Source: Verrucomicrobiota bacterium
GTDB taxonomy: Bacteria; Verrucomicrobiota; Verrucomicrobiia; Verrucomicrobiales; DEV007
DNA: 64,000 bases
Reading direction: 5' to 3'
NCBI GenBank assembly: GCA_018970725.1
Contig: JAGWVU010000008.1
Span: forward strand, 62,001-126,000
The notes beneath the pieces are model-generated. The model was not told the DNA's origin, did no database searches, and was given only the letters and a program-made list of their open reading frames with translations. Positions 8,614 to 64,000 of this stretch are shown here, in pieces (position 1 is the first letter of the stretch; each line of letters opens with the position of its first letter). The translations under genes and the position numbers were made by a program.

Positions 8614-9189
8614 TCAGGCCGGCTTGATTACGAAGAGCGGATCGTCGTATTGCACCGGTTGGGCGTTCTCGACGAGAATCTTGACGATCGTGCCGCGTTT
8701 TTCGGCCTTGATCTCGTTGAAGGTTTTCATGGCCTCGATCACGCAGATCGTGGTGTTCTCATCCACCACCTGACCGACCTTGGCGTAAGGCTCGGACTCG
8801 GGGGAGGCGGCCCGGTAGAAGGTTCCGACCATCGGGGCGTTGATGGTGTCCGTGCCCGCATCCTCCCCGCCTCCAGCAGGAAGGGCCGCGCCGCCCGGAT
8901 GAGTGGCGGTCGGCAAACCGGACGGGGGCATCGGCATGGCGATGGCCGGGGCCGCGGTCCGGGCGCTGGCGAGCAATTCCTGCAGGGCCTCGGTATCCAA
9001 GCCCTTTTTCAATTCGAGGCAGAAGTCGCCCCTCTCCAAATGGAAATACGACAACTCATGTTTGTTCATGAGTTCGACGATCTGCTTGATCTCCTTGAAT
9101 TCCAAAGTCTCCTCCTCTTCCGGTTCTGGGTTCACTCGTTCTTGTAGCGCTTTGCGGGGCGCGACCAACCGTGTTTTCGGGGGAGCCAT
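8614..9189 (-). CDS. accB: Biotin carboxyl carrier protein of acetyl-CoA carboxylase
   Basis: This encodes 191 residues. The N-terminal helical section EIKQIVELMNKHELSYFHLE is followed by an Ala/Pro-rich linker (about 77-113) and a C-terminal biotinyl domain with the target lysine Lys155 in IEAMKTFNEI. The beta-thumb segment GTFYRAASPESEPYAKVGQ marks it as an AccB-type BCCP. An in-frame GTG at 9135 would remove 18 basic residues and gives a more usual N-terminus. The ATG at 9189 has a GAGGG about 12 bases upstream, so I kept it. It is upstream of accC in the same transcript and 57 bases after the aminotransferase gene. Confidence 0.95.
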   Translation of the reverse strand: MAPPKTRLVAPRKALQERVNPEPEEEETLEFKEIKQIVELMNKHELSYFHLERGDFCLELKKGLDTEALQELLASARTAAPAIAMPMPPSGLPTATHPGGAALPAGGGEDAGTDTINAPMVGTFYRAASPESEPYAKVGQVVDENTTICVIEAMKTFNEIKAEKRGTIVKILVENAQPVQYDDPLFVIKPA

Positions 9190-9246
9190 TCGTCAAGCAC
9201 GACCCTCGTGCAATTCAAGGCGTTGGCCCTTTCCCGCAGACCCCCA

Positions 9247-10413
9247 CTAGGTCCAACCATCGATCACCGCAAACATTTTTTCCAGTTCTTCCGGGGTGTT
9301 GTAGAAATGAGGACTGAACCGCAGGAGCCGGTTGCCGCCCCGGTCCTGCCGGAAACTGGCCACCACCCCCCGTTCCTTGAGCAGGCGGAAGAGTGCCTCG
9401 AGGTCGAACCCGGAATGGCGGCAGGTCGTGATCGCGTGGAGGTGGTCACCCGACCCGGGACCATGGAGGATGAAGCCGCGCTGTTCGAGACCTTGCACCA
9501 GCGTCCGTTTGAGTTCGAGCAAGCGGGCCGAAACGGCGGGCAGTCCGATCCGGCCGATCATCTCCAAGGCGGCCCGCATCCCGAAGATGCCCGCGCAATT
9601 CAAGACGCCGGGTTCATAGCGGCGCGCCCCGTTTTCAAAGGTCACGGTCTCCTGGGCGATGAAGCCCGGTGACCGCACGTTCCAGGCGCCGAGGAGAGTG
9701 GGCCGGAGTCGTTCGAAGTGCGCCTCCTTGACATAGACGATCCCGGCGGCCAACGGGCCGAGCATCCATTTGTGGGCGTCGGCGCTGAGGAAATCCACAT
9801 GATCCACCCGGGTGGGGAAAGCGCCGAGCGTTTGGATGGCGTCCAGACAGAAGAGGGCGCCGTGCTCATGGGCCAAGCGGCCGATGGCGTCGATGTCGAT
9901 CCGCCAACCGGTCAAAAAATGGGCGCTGGCGAGGGCGACGAGGCGGGTTTTCGGGGTCAGGGCCCGGGCCACGACTTCGGGGGTGATTTCCCCGGGACGT
10001 TCCGGTTGCAAGGGGACCAACCGGACGCCGCGACGTTCCAGTTCCATCCACGGGTAGACGTTGGCCGGATAATCGTCGAGGTAAGCGACCACTTCATCGC
10101 CGGGTTGCCAGGGCAATCCGTTGGCGACCAAACTCAAGCCGAGGGAGGTGGGGCCGAGCAGGGCGATTTCGCGGGCCTTGGCACCGATGAAGTCCGCGCA
10201 GAGCTGGCGGGTCTCGTTGATGCGGCGGAGGACGCCCTCGTATTCCTGGTCGTCCCGGGTGCAGGCGTCGGTGTAATCCATCACCGCGTCCGCCACGACC
10301 CGGGGCAGGGCGGTCACGGCGGCGTGAGCCAGAAAGATTTTCTCCCGGCAAACCGGGAACGCGGCGCGGCGGACTTCTTCATCCGCGAGTTGGGCCAGGG
10401 AATCGAGGTGCAT
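9247..10413 (-). CDS. Class V PLP-dependent aminotransferase / cysteine desulfurase-like
   Basis: This encodes 388 residues with the class V fold. The PLP lysine is in SADAHKWMLGPLAAG, preceded by FCLDAIQTLGAFPT, where the Asp contacts the pyridine nitrogen and the following Gln lies near PLP. The C-terminal small domain ends RFSPHFYNTPEELEKMF, common in isopenicillin-epimerase and kynureninase-like members. No conserved catalytic Cys loop of IscS/SufS is obvious, so a true desulfurase role is doubtful. It lies 57 bases after the subtilase gene on the same strand and upstream of accB. Substrate unknown. Confidence 0.85.
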   Translation of the reverse strand: MHLDSLAQLADEEVRRAAFPVCREKIFLAHAAVTALPRVVADAVMDYTDACTRDDQEYEGVLRRINETRQLCADFIGAKAREIALLGPTSLGLSLVANGLPWQPGDEVVAYLDDYPANVYPWMELERRGVRLVPLQPERPGEITPEVVARALTPKTRLVALASAHFLTGWRIDIDAIGRLAHEHGALFCLDAIQTLGAFPTRVDHVDFLSADAHKWMLGPLAAGIVYVKEAHFERLRPTLLGAWNVRSPGFIAQETVTFENGARRYEPGVLNCAGIFGMRAALEMIGRIGLPAVSARLLELKRTLVQGLEQRGFILHGPGSGDHLHAITTCRHSGFDLEALFRLLKERGVVASFRQDRGGNRLLRFSPHFYNTPEELEKMFAVIDGWT

Positions 10414-61343: not shown

Positions 61344-61554
61344 ACCACGGCCTTTCCGGAGGATGGAGAGGCTTCACCCAACGGATCGTCCCCGGTTTCT
61401 CCGTTCCGTCATACAGCCGCCTCGGCTGCGAGCCCGCACGGGGGTTCCGCTTGCAGCTTGAACCAGTGTTTCCCCCTGCATTCTGATGGGCTCAGGTCCC
61501 CTGTTTTCCCGTGCTCTCGCTAATCATTTTGGCTTCCCCCCCGGCACGGGAATG
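61344..61554. other. Non-coding stretch before the IS remnant
   Basis: Together with the IS remnant and the following leader this is an 815-base interval without an intact gene. It contains copy B of the twin-hairpin repeat. No terminator with a U tract was seen after the membrane protein gene. Confidence 0.6.
61412..61455. repeat. Twin-hairpin intergenic repeat, copy B
   Basis: CAGCCG (61414-61419) pairs with CGGCTG (61423-61428), followed by a degenerate second stem in the segment GCACGGGGGTTCCGCTTGC. The order, spacing and central CAGCCG-n3-CGGCTG match copy A near 6277. By eye the two are roughly 70 percent identical over about 50 bases. Confidence 0.5.
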
Positions 61555-62017
61555 CTAGAATTTCCACTCGTGCTTGACCGAGCGCCAGAAGCGTTCTCCG
61601 AACACATTGTCCGGCCAGCGCCCCGCAGAGCGCGTCCAGACAGAAGCCGTTGTCCATGGTGTTGGTGATCCTTCAGTCCAAGATGACGGTCAGGTAGACA
61701 GTTCCGTTCGCCCAAGGATGGTAGGTGATGTCGGTGGGCCAGACCTCGTCGGGTCGGGTGACCGCCCGCTTGCGCAAAAGGTAAGGATACTTCGGGGTCT
61801 CGGACGCCCATGGCGGCGCCGCGGGTGGCTTCTGACGGTTCCTCGCGTTCTTGCGCTCGAAAAGAGAACTCCCGCCCTCGCGCAACTCTTTCTTCCGCGC
61901 CGCCACCTGGGTGGGATGGACCTGATTCTCCGCGGCAATCTCGTTGATGCTGCGGATGCCCTTCAGGGCCTCGACAGCCACTTTGAATTTGAACTGCGCG
62001 GCCAACGTCCGCCTCAT
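61555..62017 (-). pseudogene. Decayed IS3-family transposase
   Basis: The first 60 residues match an IS3 orfA start (MRRTLAAQFKFKVAVEALKG, INEIAAENQVHPTQV, KKELREGGSSLFE). Then, after a missing middle section, an orfB piece appears in the same frame (YPYLLRKRAVTRPDEVWPTD, ITYHPWANGTVYLTVILD, where the DD of the DDE site would begin), followed by a stop. A further orfB piece, GRWPDNVFGERFWRSVKHEW, lies in another frame at 61558-61620. The remnant is about 460 bases of an expected 1.2 kb, with an internal deletion and a frameshift, so it is inactive. No terminal inverted repeats could be assigned. It marks the accessory side of the window next to the STAND gene. Confidence 0.82.
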
Positions 62018-62145
62018 TCCAATCCGCCTGCTTCCTCACCATCGGTTCCCCGCCGTCCGGAGGGTTTTTCCGGAACCGTTACCCGCACCAGCTCCACGGA
62101 TCCATGTTCTTGGTTTGACAACCCGCTTCAGGCTCGGTGAGGATC

Positions 62146-62151
62146 AAGGAG
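62146..62151 (+). promoter_or_regulatory. Ribosome binding site fixing the STAND gene start
   Basis: AAGGAG lies seven bases before the ATG at 62159. Further upstream is a perfect -35 hexamer TTGACA (62115-62120), but no good -10 hexamer is visible at normal spacing. Confidence 0.7.
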
Positions 62152-62158
62152 CATCGCC

Positions 62159-64000
62159 ATGGACTCCACCTCCACGCCATCCTCCCAAACCATCCGCATT
62201 TTCATCTCCTCCCCGGGCGACGTGGAGGCGGAGCGGTTCAAGGCCGCGCAGGTCATCGAACAACTCGGAAAGTTTTACGGGGATACCCTTGTCCTCCAGC
62301 CGGTCCTCTGGAAACAGATGCCGCTGGAAGTGAACCAGGGCTTCCAACCCGGGATCGACGCCATCCTGTCCGCGGATCAAGGGATCGATATCGCCATCTT
62401 CATCCTCTGGTCCCGGCTCGGGACGCCGGTGACGATCGGGGACCGCACCTTTGCCTCGGGCACGGAACGGGAGTGGCACCTCATGCTGGAAGCCTTGGCC
62501 CAATCTGGCGGGGAACGTCCGGACATCCTCTTTTACCGCCGCCGGGACGAGGAAGGCTTCACTGCCGGATTGGCCGCGGTGAAACCTGAGCTGCTCCAGG
62601 ACGCGATCGATCAGAACCGCGCCGCGGAAGCTTTCATGCAGGCCCATTTCTGGGACCGGGAAGGCAAGAACATCCGGGCGTATCACGGTTTCCAGCGTCC
62701 CATCGACTTCGCCACCATCCTCAAGGTGCATCTCCGCGCCTTGATCGACCGCCGTCTCACCGACCGCGTCTGGCTGCGCGGCGCCTCGTGGACCGAGGAA
62801 CCGTATCGCGGGTTGGAACCGTTCCAGCTGGAGCACGCCCCCATCTTCTTCGGCCGGGAAGCGGAGATTTCCGAACTGGAAACGCGTCTCCGGCAGCGGG
62901 ACCACGCGCCCAAGGAACCGGCTTTCCTCGCCGTGATCGGTGCGTCCGGATCGGGCAAATCCTCCCTGGTCCGCGCTGGTCTCCGGGCCACGCTCACCAG
63001 TGAAAACCTGGACGAATCCGTGGCGGCCTGGCGTTCCATCGCCATGATCCCGGCTCAGGCGCAGGGGGATCTCTTTGGCGGCCTCGTCCGGGAATTGGCC
63101 ACCGATCCGCGTGGCCTCCCGGAGCTGCTCAGCGGTGGGCTCACCCAGGAAGACCTCCGCCTCTCCCTTCAGGAATCCGTCTCCGCCACGTTCCGCACCG
63201 TGCTCAAACCGGCCCTGGTCCGCGCCGCGACGACGGCTGGCGGCGTGGTGAAACTCCTCGTCGTGGTCGATCAGTTCGAGGAAATCTTTACCGACAAAAA
63301 GATCTCCCCGGAAAACCGGGAGCGCTTCCTCGAAGGGCTCGAACTCCTCGCCTTGTCCGGCTATTGCTGGGTCGTGGTCACGATGCGCAGTGACTTTTAT
63401 GAGCAGGCACAGACCTCGCCCGCCTTTCTCCGGCTCAAGGGCGAGCGCGGGCAATACGATCTCCTCCCGCCAGGTCCCGATGCCCTGCAACGCATCATCA
63501 CCGAGCCCGCCCGGCTCGCCGGATTGCGTTTCGAGAAACGGCCGGACGGCACCAGCCTCGTCGCCCAGATCCTCAAGGACGCCCGGGGCCAGTCCGACCT
63601 CCTTCCGCTTCTCTCCGACCTCCTCCTGGATCTCTATCAGCACCGCAAAGACAACGTCATCCCTTTCGCCGCTTACGAGGCTTATGCCGATGCCGAAAAA
63701 GAGCAGACCGGTCTGGAAGGCGTCCTTAGCACCCGGGCCGAGGCTGTCTTCCAAGGTCTCACCCCGGAAGCCCGGTCCACTTGTCCCCAAATCCTCCACG
63801 CCCTGGTCACCGTGGAAGGGGAATCCGACGTCCGGCGCCGCGCCAACAAAGCCGCGCTTCTGGACACCCCGGACAAAGCCGCCCTGGTCCAAGCCTTCAT
63901 CAAAGCCCGGCTCCTCACCACTGACGACACCGGTCAAGGCGCCCAAGTCACCCTGGCCCACGAAGCCCTCCTCCGGAAATGGGACCGCGTCGTCGCCTGG
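62159..64000 (+). CDS. DUF4062-nSTAND1 NTPase, partial (runs off the window)
   Basis: There are 614 codons with no stop before the window end. Residues about 10-100 match DUF4062: IRIFISSPGDVEAERFKAAQ, GIDIAIFILWSRLGTPV and GTEREWHLMLEAL, a Rossmann-like domain often at the N-terminus of signalling NTPases. Residues about 225-490 are an nSTAND1-type domain: YRGLEPFQLEHAPIFFGREA, the Walker A GASGSGKSS with Lys267, and the Walker B VVDQFEEIF with Asp371. Later helical segments (TMRSDFYEQAQ, LLPPGPDALQRIITEPA, LPLLSDLLLDLY, VTLAHEALLRKW) are typical of the STAND arm. Many relatives continue into WD40 or TPR repeats, which would lie outside this window. The start has a good ribosome binding site. 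Possible roles are antiviral defence (Avs-like) or other switch signalling; these are inference. Confidence 0.9.
   Translation, partial: MDSTSTPSSQTIRIFISSPGDVEAERFKAAQVIEQLGKFYGDTLVLQPVLWKQMPLEVNQGFQPGIDAILSADQGIDIAIFILWSRLGTPVTIGDRTFASGTEREWHLMLEALAQSGGERPDILFYRRRDEEGFTAGLAAVKPELLQDAIDQNRAAEAFMQAHFWDREGKNIRAYHGFQRPIDFATILKVHLRALIDRRLTDRVWLRGASWTEEPYRGLEPFQLEHAPIFFGREAEISELETRLRQRDHAPKEPAFLAVIGASGSGKSSLVRAGLRATLTSENLDESVAAWRSIAMIPAQAQGDLFGGLVRELATDPRGLPELLSGGLTQEDLRLSLQESVSATFRTVLKPALVRAATTAGGVVKLLVVVDQFEEIFTDKKISPENRERFLEGLELLALSGYCWVVVTMRSDFYEQAQTSPAFLRLKGERGQYDLLPPGPDALQRIITEPARLAGLRFEKRPDGTSLVAQILKDARGQSDLLPLLSDLLLDLYQHRKDNVIPFAAYEAYADAEKEQTGLEGVLSTRAEAVFQGLTPEARSTCPQILHALVTVEGESDVRRRANKAALLDTPDKAALVQAFIKARLLTTDDTGQGAQVTLAHEALLRKWDRVVAW

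What the first reader, a model, noticed from the sequence alone, without database searches (positions are those of the whole stretch)
62159..64000. DUF4062-nSTAND1 protein: candidate defence or signalling NTPase cut by the window edge
The sequence shows a DUF4062-like N-terminus joined to a complete Walker A/B nSTAND1 domain. STAND NTPases with effector-like N-termini include Avs-type antiphage proteins and programmed-cell-death regulators. DUF4062 has no established activity as far as I know, so this pairing could be an undescribed sensor-effector. It lies beside a decayed insertion sequence, and the remaining genes of the window are mostly housekeeping, so this is the most accessory-like locus.
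Basis: partly seen in the sequence, partly recalled or inferred. Interest (0 to 1): 0.8.

Follow-up and report, generated by a model that had tools for sequence, protein, structure and literature searches.

The report
Retroelement-diversified membrane NADase–STAND receptor
The gene cut by the window edge most likely encodes a cell-suicide receptor, made of an NAD-destroying TIR-like domain, an ATP-driven STAND switch and a C-terminal binding head, and the tip of that head is hypermutated by a neighbouring retroelement, a bacterial parallel to the diversified receptors of animal immunity.

Summary
In detail: window 62159-64000 (+) is the start of a DUF4062-nSTAND1 gene. Its contig runs 2.4 kb past the window, and the extended protein (1,414 aa, still open) adds a transmembrane helix, WD40 repeats and an FGE/C-type-lectin domain. 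The contig breaks inside the tip of that domain.

The break is informative. Another contig end (C29) overlaps it by 87 nt and continues into an HRDC protein, a reverse transcriptase (RT) and a template repeat. Within the repeat, the two contig ends differ from each other, and the window gene from the template, only at template adenines. In a same-genus genome a 91%-identical FGE domain, HRDC, RT and template lie on one contig, with 12 of 12 mismatches at adenines. The window gene is therefore the target of a diversity-generating retroelement (DGR).

DUF4062 is now reported to be a TIR-like NADase (Osinski 2026 preprint). Its catalytic Glu and one active-site Arg align to invariant E105 and R86 here.

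Best reading: an inner-membrane receptor whose hypermutated periplasmic head triggers STAND assembly and NAD+ depletion. STAND-FGE/DGR conflict systems are already described; the DUF4062 effector, WD40 and single-pass membrane layout make this a new variant. Defence function is untested.

The parts
62107..62158 (+). conserved 5' leader and left edge of the cassette; RBS AAGGAG at 62146-62151
   Evidence: nucleotide similarity to two same-genus genomes (G001, G002) begins at 62107 in both; upstream DNA differs in all three
62159..64000 (+). DUF4062-nSTAND1 part of the DGR target gene; it continues to the contig end at C20:128400 (2.4 kb beyond the window; 1,414 aa read, still open)
   Evidence: ORF and translation
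62159..62773 (+). DUF4062 / TIR-like domain, residues 1-205, predicted NADase effector
   Evidence: Pfam 20.5 bits (below cut-off); profile match to TEP1 TIR 11gz, E 0.0044; AlphaFold model pLDDT 70.6 with a five-strand alternating alpha/beta order; best structural rows are plant TIR domains, Z 11.0 and 10.8, though Rab GTPases reach 9.9
62471..62473 (+). E105, predicted catalytic Glu (aligned to TEP1 E1008)
   Evidence: invariant in 16 homologues; aligned; TEP1 numbering fixed by R908, R976 and E1008 sharing one offset
62414..62416 (+). R86, counterpart of TEP1 active-site R976
   Evidence: invariant in 16 homologues; aligned
62801..64000 (+). nSTAND1 NTPase domain, residues 215-614 in the window (to 642 in the extended protein)
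   Evidence: PF20703, 283.5 bits in the window, 307.3 bits extended
62939..62962 (+). Walker A GASGSGKS (residues 261-268)
63263..63283 (+). Walker B VVDQFEE (residues 369-375)

Best explanation
The gene is the variable (target) gene of a diversity-generating retroelement. SHOWN by sequence: (1) the protein is DUF4062/TIR-like - nSTAND1 - one hydrophobic helix - WD40 - FGE/C-type-lectin; (2) its last readable part is a variable repeat that differs from a template repeat only at template adenines; (3) in a same-genus genome a 91%-identical FGE domain lies on one contig with an HRDC protein, an RT and the template repeat. INFERRED: the RT copies the template with random bases at adenines and the product overwrites the receptor tip, giving up to about 6e14 protein variants. 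The arginine-rich stretch before the single hydrophobic helix places DUF4062-nSTAND1 in the cytoplasm and WD40 plus the variable lectin-like tip in the periplasm. Binding of a foreign or non-kin ligand releases the WD40 brake; the STAND domain binds ATP and oligomerises; the clustered DUF4062 domains hydrolyse NAD+ through E105; and the cell dies or stops growing, protecting its neighbours. Rough likelihoods: DGR target 0.95; DUF4062 is an NADase effector here 0.75; periplasmic sensor 0.65; purpose is defence or non-kin recognition by cell death 0.6.
For: Extended architecture: FGE 129.6 bits, WD40 78.1 bits, nSTAND1 307 bits; hydrophobic helix 697-715 with 7 K/R before and 2 after, and the same pattern in the C35 paralogue. 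DGR: window-gene repeat against the C29 template, 7 of 7 mismatches at A (hypergeometric p 1e-6); C35 paralogue 23 of 23; G001 12 of 12; V1-115 orthologue 16 of 17. The ends of C20 and C29 overlap by 87 nt with 9 differences, 8 of them at template adenines. The 3' flank of the V1-115 orthologue (L008, nSTAND1 95% identical to the window gene) matches the C29 3' flank at 96.5%. Order target - HRDC - RT - template on one contig in G001. RT motif IGALTSQ and YMDD. The closest solved structure to the FGE domain is Treponema denticola variable protein 1 (2y3c, E 1.4e-22). NADase: PMC13174449 with E105 and R86 invariant.
Against: No experiment on this protein. The C20-C29 join crosses a break and rests on an 87-nt overlap plus orthologues. 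The DUF4062 match is weak on a single sequence; TEP1 R908 is not conserved; in the preprint only TEP1 of four human DUF4062-NACHT proteins was an active NADase, so an invariant Glu does not prove activity. The fold comparison is not decisive. No defence genes adjoin. Topology rests on charge counting alone.
Confidence: 0.68

Rival explanations
1. The DGR-diversified receptor serves kin recognition or cell-cell adhesion (self/non-self discrimination between cells), not phage defence; the NADase kills on contact with non-kin.
For: Predicted periplasmic or outward-facing sensor; no defence island; Dore et al. propose this as an alternative role for such systems.
Against: A periplasmic sensor could equally see an entering phage; bacterial DUF4062 proteins tested so far respond to a phage portal.
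Confidence: 0.2
2. The STAND protein is a non-lethal regulator or signal transducer; DUF4062 is an oligomerisation or adaptor module without NADase activity.
For: In PMC13174449 NWD1, NWD2 and NPHP3 showed no NADase activity although they carry DUF4062-NACHT; TEP1 R908 is not conserved here.
Against: E105 and R86 are invariant in 16 homologues of 30-95% identity; hypervariable binding heads fit conflict better than fixed regulation.
Confidence: 0.15
3. The C29 cassette belongs to a second target gene that shares its template with the window gene; the window gene is a trans target or a relic.
For: G005 has one template serving two repeats; C20 and C29 also differ at one base 5' of the template match.
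Against: No second FGE domain of this type exists in the genome; G001 has one such target directly next to HRDC and RT; the V1-115 orthologue has the C29 3' flank. Even if true, the window gene remains a DGR target.
Confidence: 0.1
4. The C-terminal domain is an active formylglycine-generating enzyme and the gene is metabolic.
For: Pfam name FGE-sulfatase.
Against: The residue aligned with the first cysteine of the Cys pair in Streptomyces-type FGE is Ser here and in the orthologue, Ser in the C35 paralogue by reading, and variable Asn codons in the template; the closest solved structure is a DGR variable protein, not an FGE.
Confidence: 0.02

Closest known systems
STAND NTPase-FGS conflict systems with DGR (Kaur et al. 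2021, PMC8195603; Dore et al. 2024, PMC10907252; e.g. Thiohalocapsa PB-PSB1 DGR 6, EAD8-nSTAND1-FGE)
   Same: nSTAND1 or NACHT core, C-terminal FGE/C-type-lectin domain carrying the variable repeat, linked DGR RT; N-terminal NAD-processing effectors such as TIR are already listed in that class
   Different: N-terminus is DUF4062, not mentioned in those texts; one transmembrane helix and WD40 between STAND and FGE; HRDC accessory protein instead of the four-helix Avd; no paired EAD gene found
Swarozyc (DUF4062 antiphage NADase, Osinski et al. 2026 preprint, PMC13174449)
   Same: DUF4062 effector with the catalytic Glu conserved
   Different: lacks the short winged-helix portal-binding AUX domain; has STAND, WD40 and a diversified FGE sensor instead
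Human TEP1, NWD1, NWD2 (DUF4062-NACHT-WD40)
   Same: same order of effector, STAND-type NTPase and WD40
   Different: nSTAND1 rather than NACHT, a membrane helix, and a DGR-diversified C-terminal lectin-like domain; TEP1 sits in the vault
Avs antiviral STAND proteins
   Same: tripartite effector-STAND-sensor layout
   Different: no Avs model match in PADLOC; germline-fixed TPR sensors in Avs, diversified FGE here
Treponema denticola TvpA DGR variable protein (PDB 2y3c)
   Same: FGE/C-type-lectin fold with the variable repeat at the C-terminus; closest solved structure
   Different: TvpA has no STAND or NADase domains in the matched chain

Membership tests
Diversity-generating retroelement target | variable repeat differing from a template repeat at adenines only | tested here: met
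   7 of 7 (window gene), 12 of 12 (G001), 23 of 23 (C35 paralogue), 16 of 17 (V1-115); C29 has 15 at A and 2 elsewhere in the core
Diversity-generating retroelement target | linked DGR-type reverse transcriptase | tested here: met
   RVT_1 and motif IGALTSQ/YMDD; on one contig with the 91%-identical FGE target in G001; in the own genome via the 87-nt contig overlap
Diversity-generating retroelement target | accessory protein (Avd, HRDC or MSL) | tested here: met
   HRDC PF00570 68 bits in C35; homologous protein in C29 and G001
Diversity-generating retroelement target | variable repeat in a C-type-lectin-fold domain | tested here: met
   FGE PF03781; best PDB match is the DGR variable protein 2y3c; own model of the domain too poor to use
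Diversity-generating retroelement target | adenine mutagenesis actually occurring | not testable with these tools
   two haplotypes at the contig break and divergent repeats among orthologues are consistent with it; no reads available
STAND-FGS/DGR conflict systems (Kaur 2021, Dore 2024) | N-terminal effector or EAD - STAND - C-terminal FGE carrying the variable repeat | tested here: met
STAND-FGS/DGR conflict systems (Kaur 2021, Dore 2024) | conflict/defence function | not testable with these tools
   not shown experimentally for any C-type-lectin STAND protein either (PMC10907252)
DUF4062 TIR-like NADases | DUF4062 fold and family match | tested here: met
   profile to TEP1 TIR E 0.0044; alpha/beta model, best rows TIR but not clearly above Rab GTPases; Pfam below cut-off on single sequence
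DUF4062 TIR-like NADases | catalytic Glu (KpSwz E97, TEP1 E1008) | tested here: met
   E105 invariant in 16 homologues and aligned with E1008
DUF4062 TIR-like NADases | NAD+ hydrolysis | not testable with these tools
   needs protein
Swarozyc defence system | C-terminal winged-helix AUX domain that binds phage portal | tested here: not met
   C-terminus is nSTAND1-WD40-FGE
Avs | match to Avs family models | tested here: not met
   no Avs model at E <= 0.01 in PADLOC

The most novel reading that the evidence does not exclude
A compact cassette (target, HRDC, RT, template) moves between chromosomal sites and supplies an adaptive, cell-surface-facing immune receptor: a retroelement hypermutates the periplasmic head, and ligand binding is signalled across the inner membrane to a cytoplasmic DUF4062 NADase that kills the cell. 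Different cells of one population already carry different receptor variants, which is why the assembly broke there.
Probability: 0.35. Interest if true: 0.88.

Novelty: new variant of a known kind. Interest (0 to 1): 0.64.

Why it matters
Whether DGR-diversified STAND receptors are a form of adaptive immunity in bacteria has been proposed but not tested. Here the effector has a measurable output (NAD+ loss, with a point mutant known to kill it in relatives), the system is one short cassette, and two receptor variants are already in hand. That makes the idea directly testable. It also links two separate lines of work: DUF4062 NADases, including the human vault protein TEP1, and DGR-diversified sensors.

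Tried and rejected
Active FGE enzyme: rejected on the missing cysteine and on the best PDB match being a DGR variable protein. Avs and Swarozyc membership: not met. Defence island: not seen in the window. The AlphaFold model of the FGE domain was too poor to use (mean pLDDT 49.6). Foldseek on the DUF4062 model ranks a peptidoglycan O-acetyltransferase first and plant TIR second; VIA-align puts TIR first at Z 11.0 but Rab GTPases reach 9.9, so the fold search supports TIR without deciding it. TEP1's own structure does not appear among the listed rows; its absence says nothing. Viral contigs: no relative of the DUF4062 region. The Magnetococcales and Xanthomonadales DUF4062-nSTAND1-FGE genes (L011, L012) were considered as further DGR targets: no template/variable pair was found on their contigs; L011's genome has one RT match elsewhere (E 2.6e-35) and L012's none, so they are not counted.

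Full report
What is there. Window 62159-64000 (+) opens with ATG behind AAGGAG and runs off the window. The window is G000:C20:62001-126000 and the contig ends at 128401, so the gene could be read 2.4 kb further: 1,414 residues, still open at the contig end. Order of domains: DUF4062-like 1-205; nSTAND1 215-642 (307 bits); one hydrophobic helix 697-715; WD40 repeats, best stretches about 890-1087; FGE-sulfatase 1196-1411, 130 bits.

A contig that breaks in a hypervariable repeat. Contig C29, read on its minus strand, begins with the last 58 codons of an FGE gene, then an HRDC protein, an RT, and a repeat of the gene's end. The last 87 nt of C20 and the first 87 nt of C29 are the same sequence with nine differences. 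Eight fall on bases that are A in the C29 repeat copy behind the RT; one lies just 5' of the repeat. The window gene differs from that template at 7 of 12 adenines and 0 of 52 other bases; C29's own copy at 14 of 27 adenines and 2 of 86 others over the first 113 bases (15 and 2 over the 120-base match). This is the signature of a diversity-generating retroelement. The simplest account is one locus whose population carries several variants, so that the assembler stopped there. This is an inference: no reads were available.

Independent support from relatives. In same-genus genome G001 one contig (L182) holds an FGE gene end 91% identical to the window gene's, HRDC, an RT 88% identical to C29's, and a template; 12 of 12 mismatches are at adenines. 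In the same-genus MAG V1-115 (L008, nSTAND1 95% identical to the window gene) the gene end is complete; its repeat differs from the C29 template at 16 adenines and 1 other base, and its 3' flank matches C29's at 96.5%. The own genome has a second cassette on C35 (FGE gene end, HRDC, RT, template; 23 of 23 at adenines; RTs 63% identical), and C69 holds the N-terminal half of a DUF4062-nSTAND1 paralogue that probably belongs to it. V1-115 has yet another: a DUF4062-NACHT-FGE gene next to HRDC and RT (L183), so DUF4062 has been paired with DGR-linked FGE at least twice, with different NTPases. In 387 genomes of the order, 32 carry RTs of this type. Among the 28 further loci examined, most have FGE near the RT but none shows DUF4062 in the FGE gene. 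The combination therefore looks rare and restricted to this genus in the sample.

The N-terminal domain. Pfam's DUF4062 scores below cut-off on one sequence (20.5 bits). A 16-sequence profile finds one PDB chain, human TEP1 11gz, E 0.0044. In that alignment TEP1 R908, R976 and E1008 (numbering fixed by a common offset of 893) fall on G20, R86 and E105; R86 and E105 are invariant in all 16 homologues. The AlphaFold model (pLDDT 70.6) alternates strands and helices as in TIR domains; plant TIR domains lead the structural ranking at Z 11.0 and 10.8, but Rab GTPases reach 9.9, so the fold comparison supports without deciding. Osinski et al. (2026 preprint, PMC13174449) show that DUF4062 domains are TIR-like NADases, with E97 needed in Klebsiella Swarozyc and E1008 in TEP1. 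They also found no activity for NWD1, NWD2 and NPHP3, so conservation of Glu is not proof.

The C-terminal domain. The closest solved structure is the DGR variable protein of Treponema denticola (2y3c, E 1.4e-22), ahead of true FGEs. The residue at the first cysteine of the FGE cysteine pair is not Cys here, so it is a binding head rather than an enzyme. The template has 27 adenines in 17 codons, ten of them AAC; random bases there allow up to about 6e14 protein variants.

Topology. Seven Lys/Arg precede and two follow the one clear hydrophobic helix, in the window gene, its orthologue and similarly in the C35 paralogue. By the positive-inside rule the effector and NTPase are cytoplasmic, and WD40 and the variable head periplasmic. 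This is a prediction.

Mobility. Similarity among the three same-genus genomes starts 52 nt before the ATG (window 62107); the DNA beyond differs in each. At the other end C29 and G001 stay alike to roughly 200-300 nt past the template and then diverge. The cassette thus sits at different chromosomal sites within one genus.

What is known. Kaur et al. 2021 (PMC8195603) describe STAND-FGS proteins with NAD-processing N-termini, nSTAND1 or NACHT cores and DGR association. Dore et al. 2024 (PMC10907252) document DGR-diversified STAND-lectin targets in multicellular bacteria, some with TIR N-termini and some with periplasmic heads, and propose antigen sensing or kin recognition. Neither text mentions DUF4062, and the DUF4062 preprint does not mention retroelements. 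The finding joins the two: a new variant of a known kind, not a new kind.

Mechanism and certainty. DGR target: about 0.95. NADase effector: about 0.75. Periplasmic sensor: about 0.65. Defence or non-kin killing as purpose: about 0.6. Defence has not been shown experimentally for any lectin-headed STAND protein.

Noticed in passing
L182:8365-9360 (-), G001:C64: The RT of the G001 cassette reads YMDN instead of YMDD at the catalytic motif, so this copy may be inactive although its repeats differ only at adenines.
   Followed up: no
L182:10700-11790, G001:C64: About 1.1 kb lies between the target and HRDC in G001, with a partial HRDC duplication, low-complexity repeats and an opposite-strand ORF that looks like a GxxExxY-family protein.
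   Followed up: no
L183:4953-9550, G002:C109: Second DGR-linked target type in the genus: DUF4062-NACHT-FGE, HRDC, RT. No intact template was found by the scan; behind the RT there is a second variable-repeat-like copy with the gene's own 3' flank, followed by what looks like transposase sequence.
   Followed up: partly
L186:8174-9895 (-), G002:C7: Caspase (Peptidase_C14)-FGE gene beside an RT, on the opposite strand.
   Followed up: no
L227:9701-11557 (-), G038:C102: FGE gene next to HRDC and a DGR-like RT whose N-terminus reads like a caspase-type peptidase.
   Followed up: no
L112:8256-8368, G000:C29: A second, decayed copy of the RT 3' end lies 1.5 kb beyond the template, and a 40-nt piece recurs every 135 nt at 8874-9453.
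   Followed up: no
window 61524-62017 (-): Short frame-broken stretch resembling an IS transposase (HTH_28, 21.9 bits, below cut-off) directly upstream of the gene.
   Followed up: partly
G000:C20:1083-2396: A second, distant nSTAND1-like ORF (about 30% identical) lies at the other end of the same contig.
   Followed up: no
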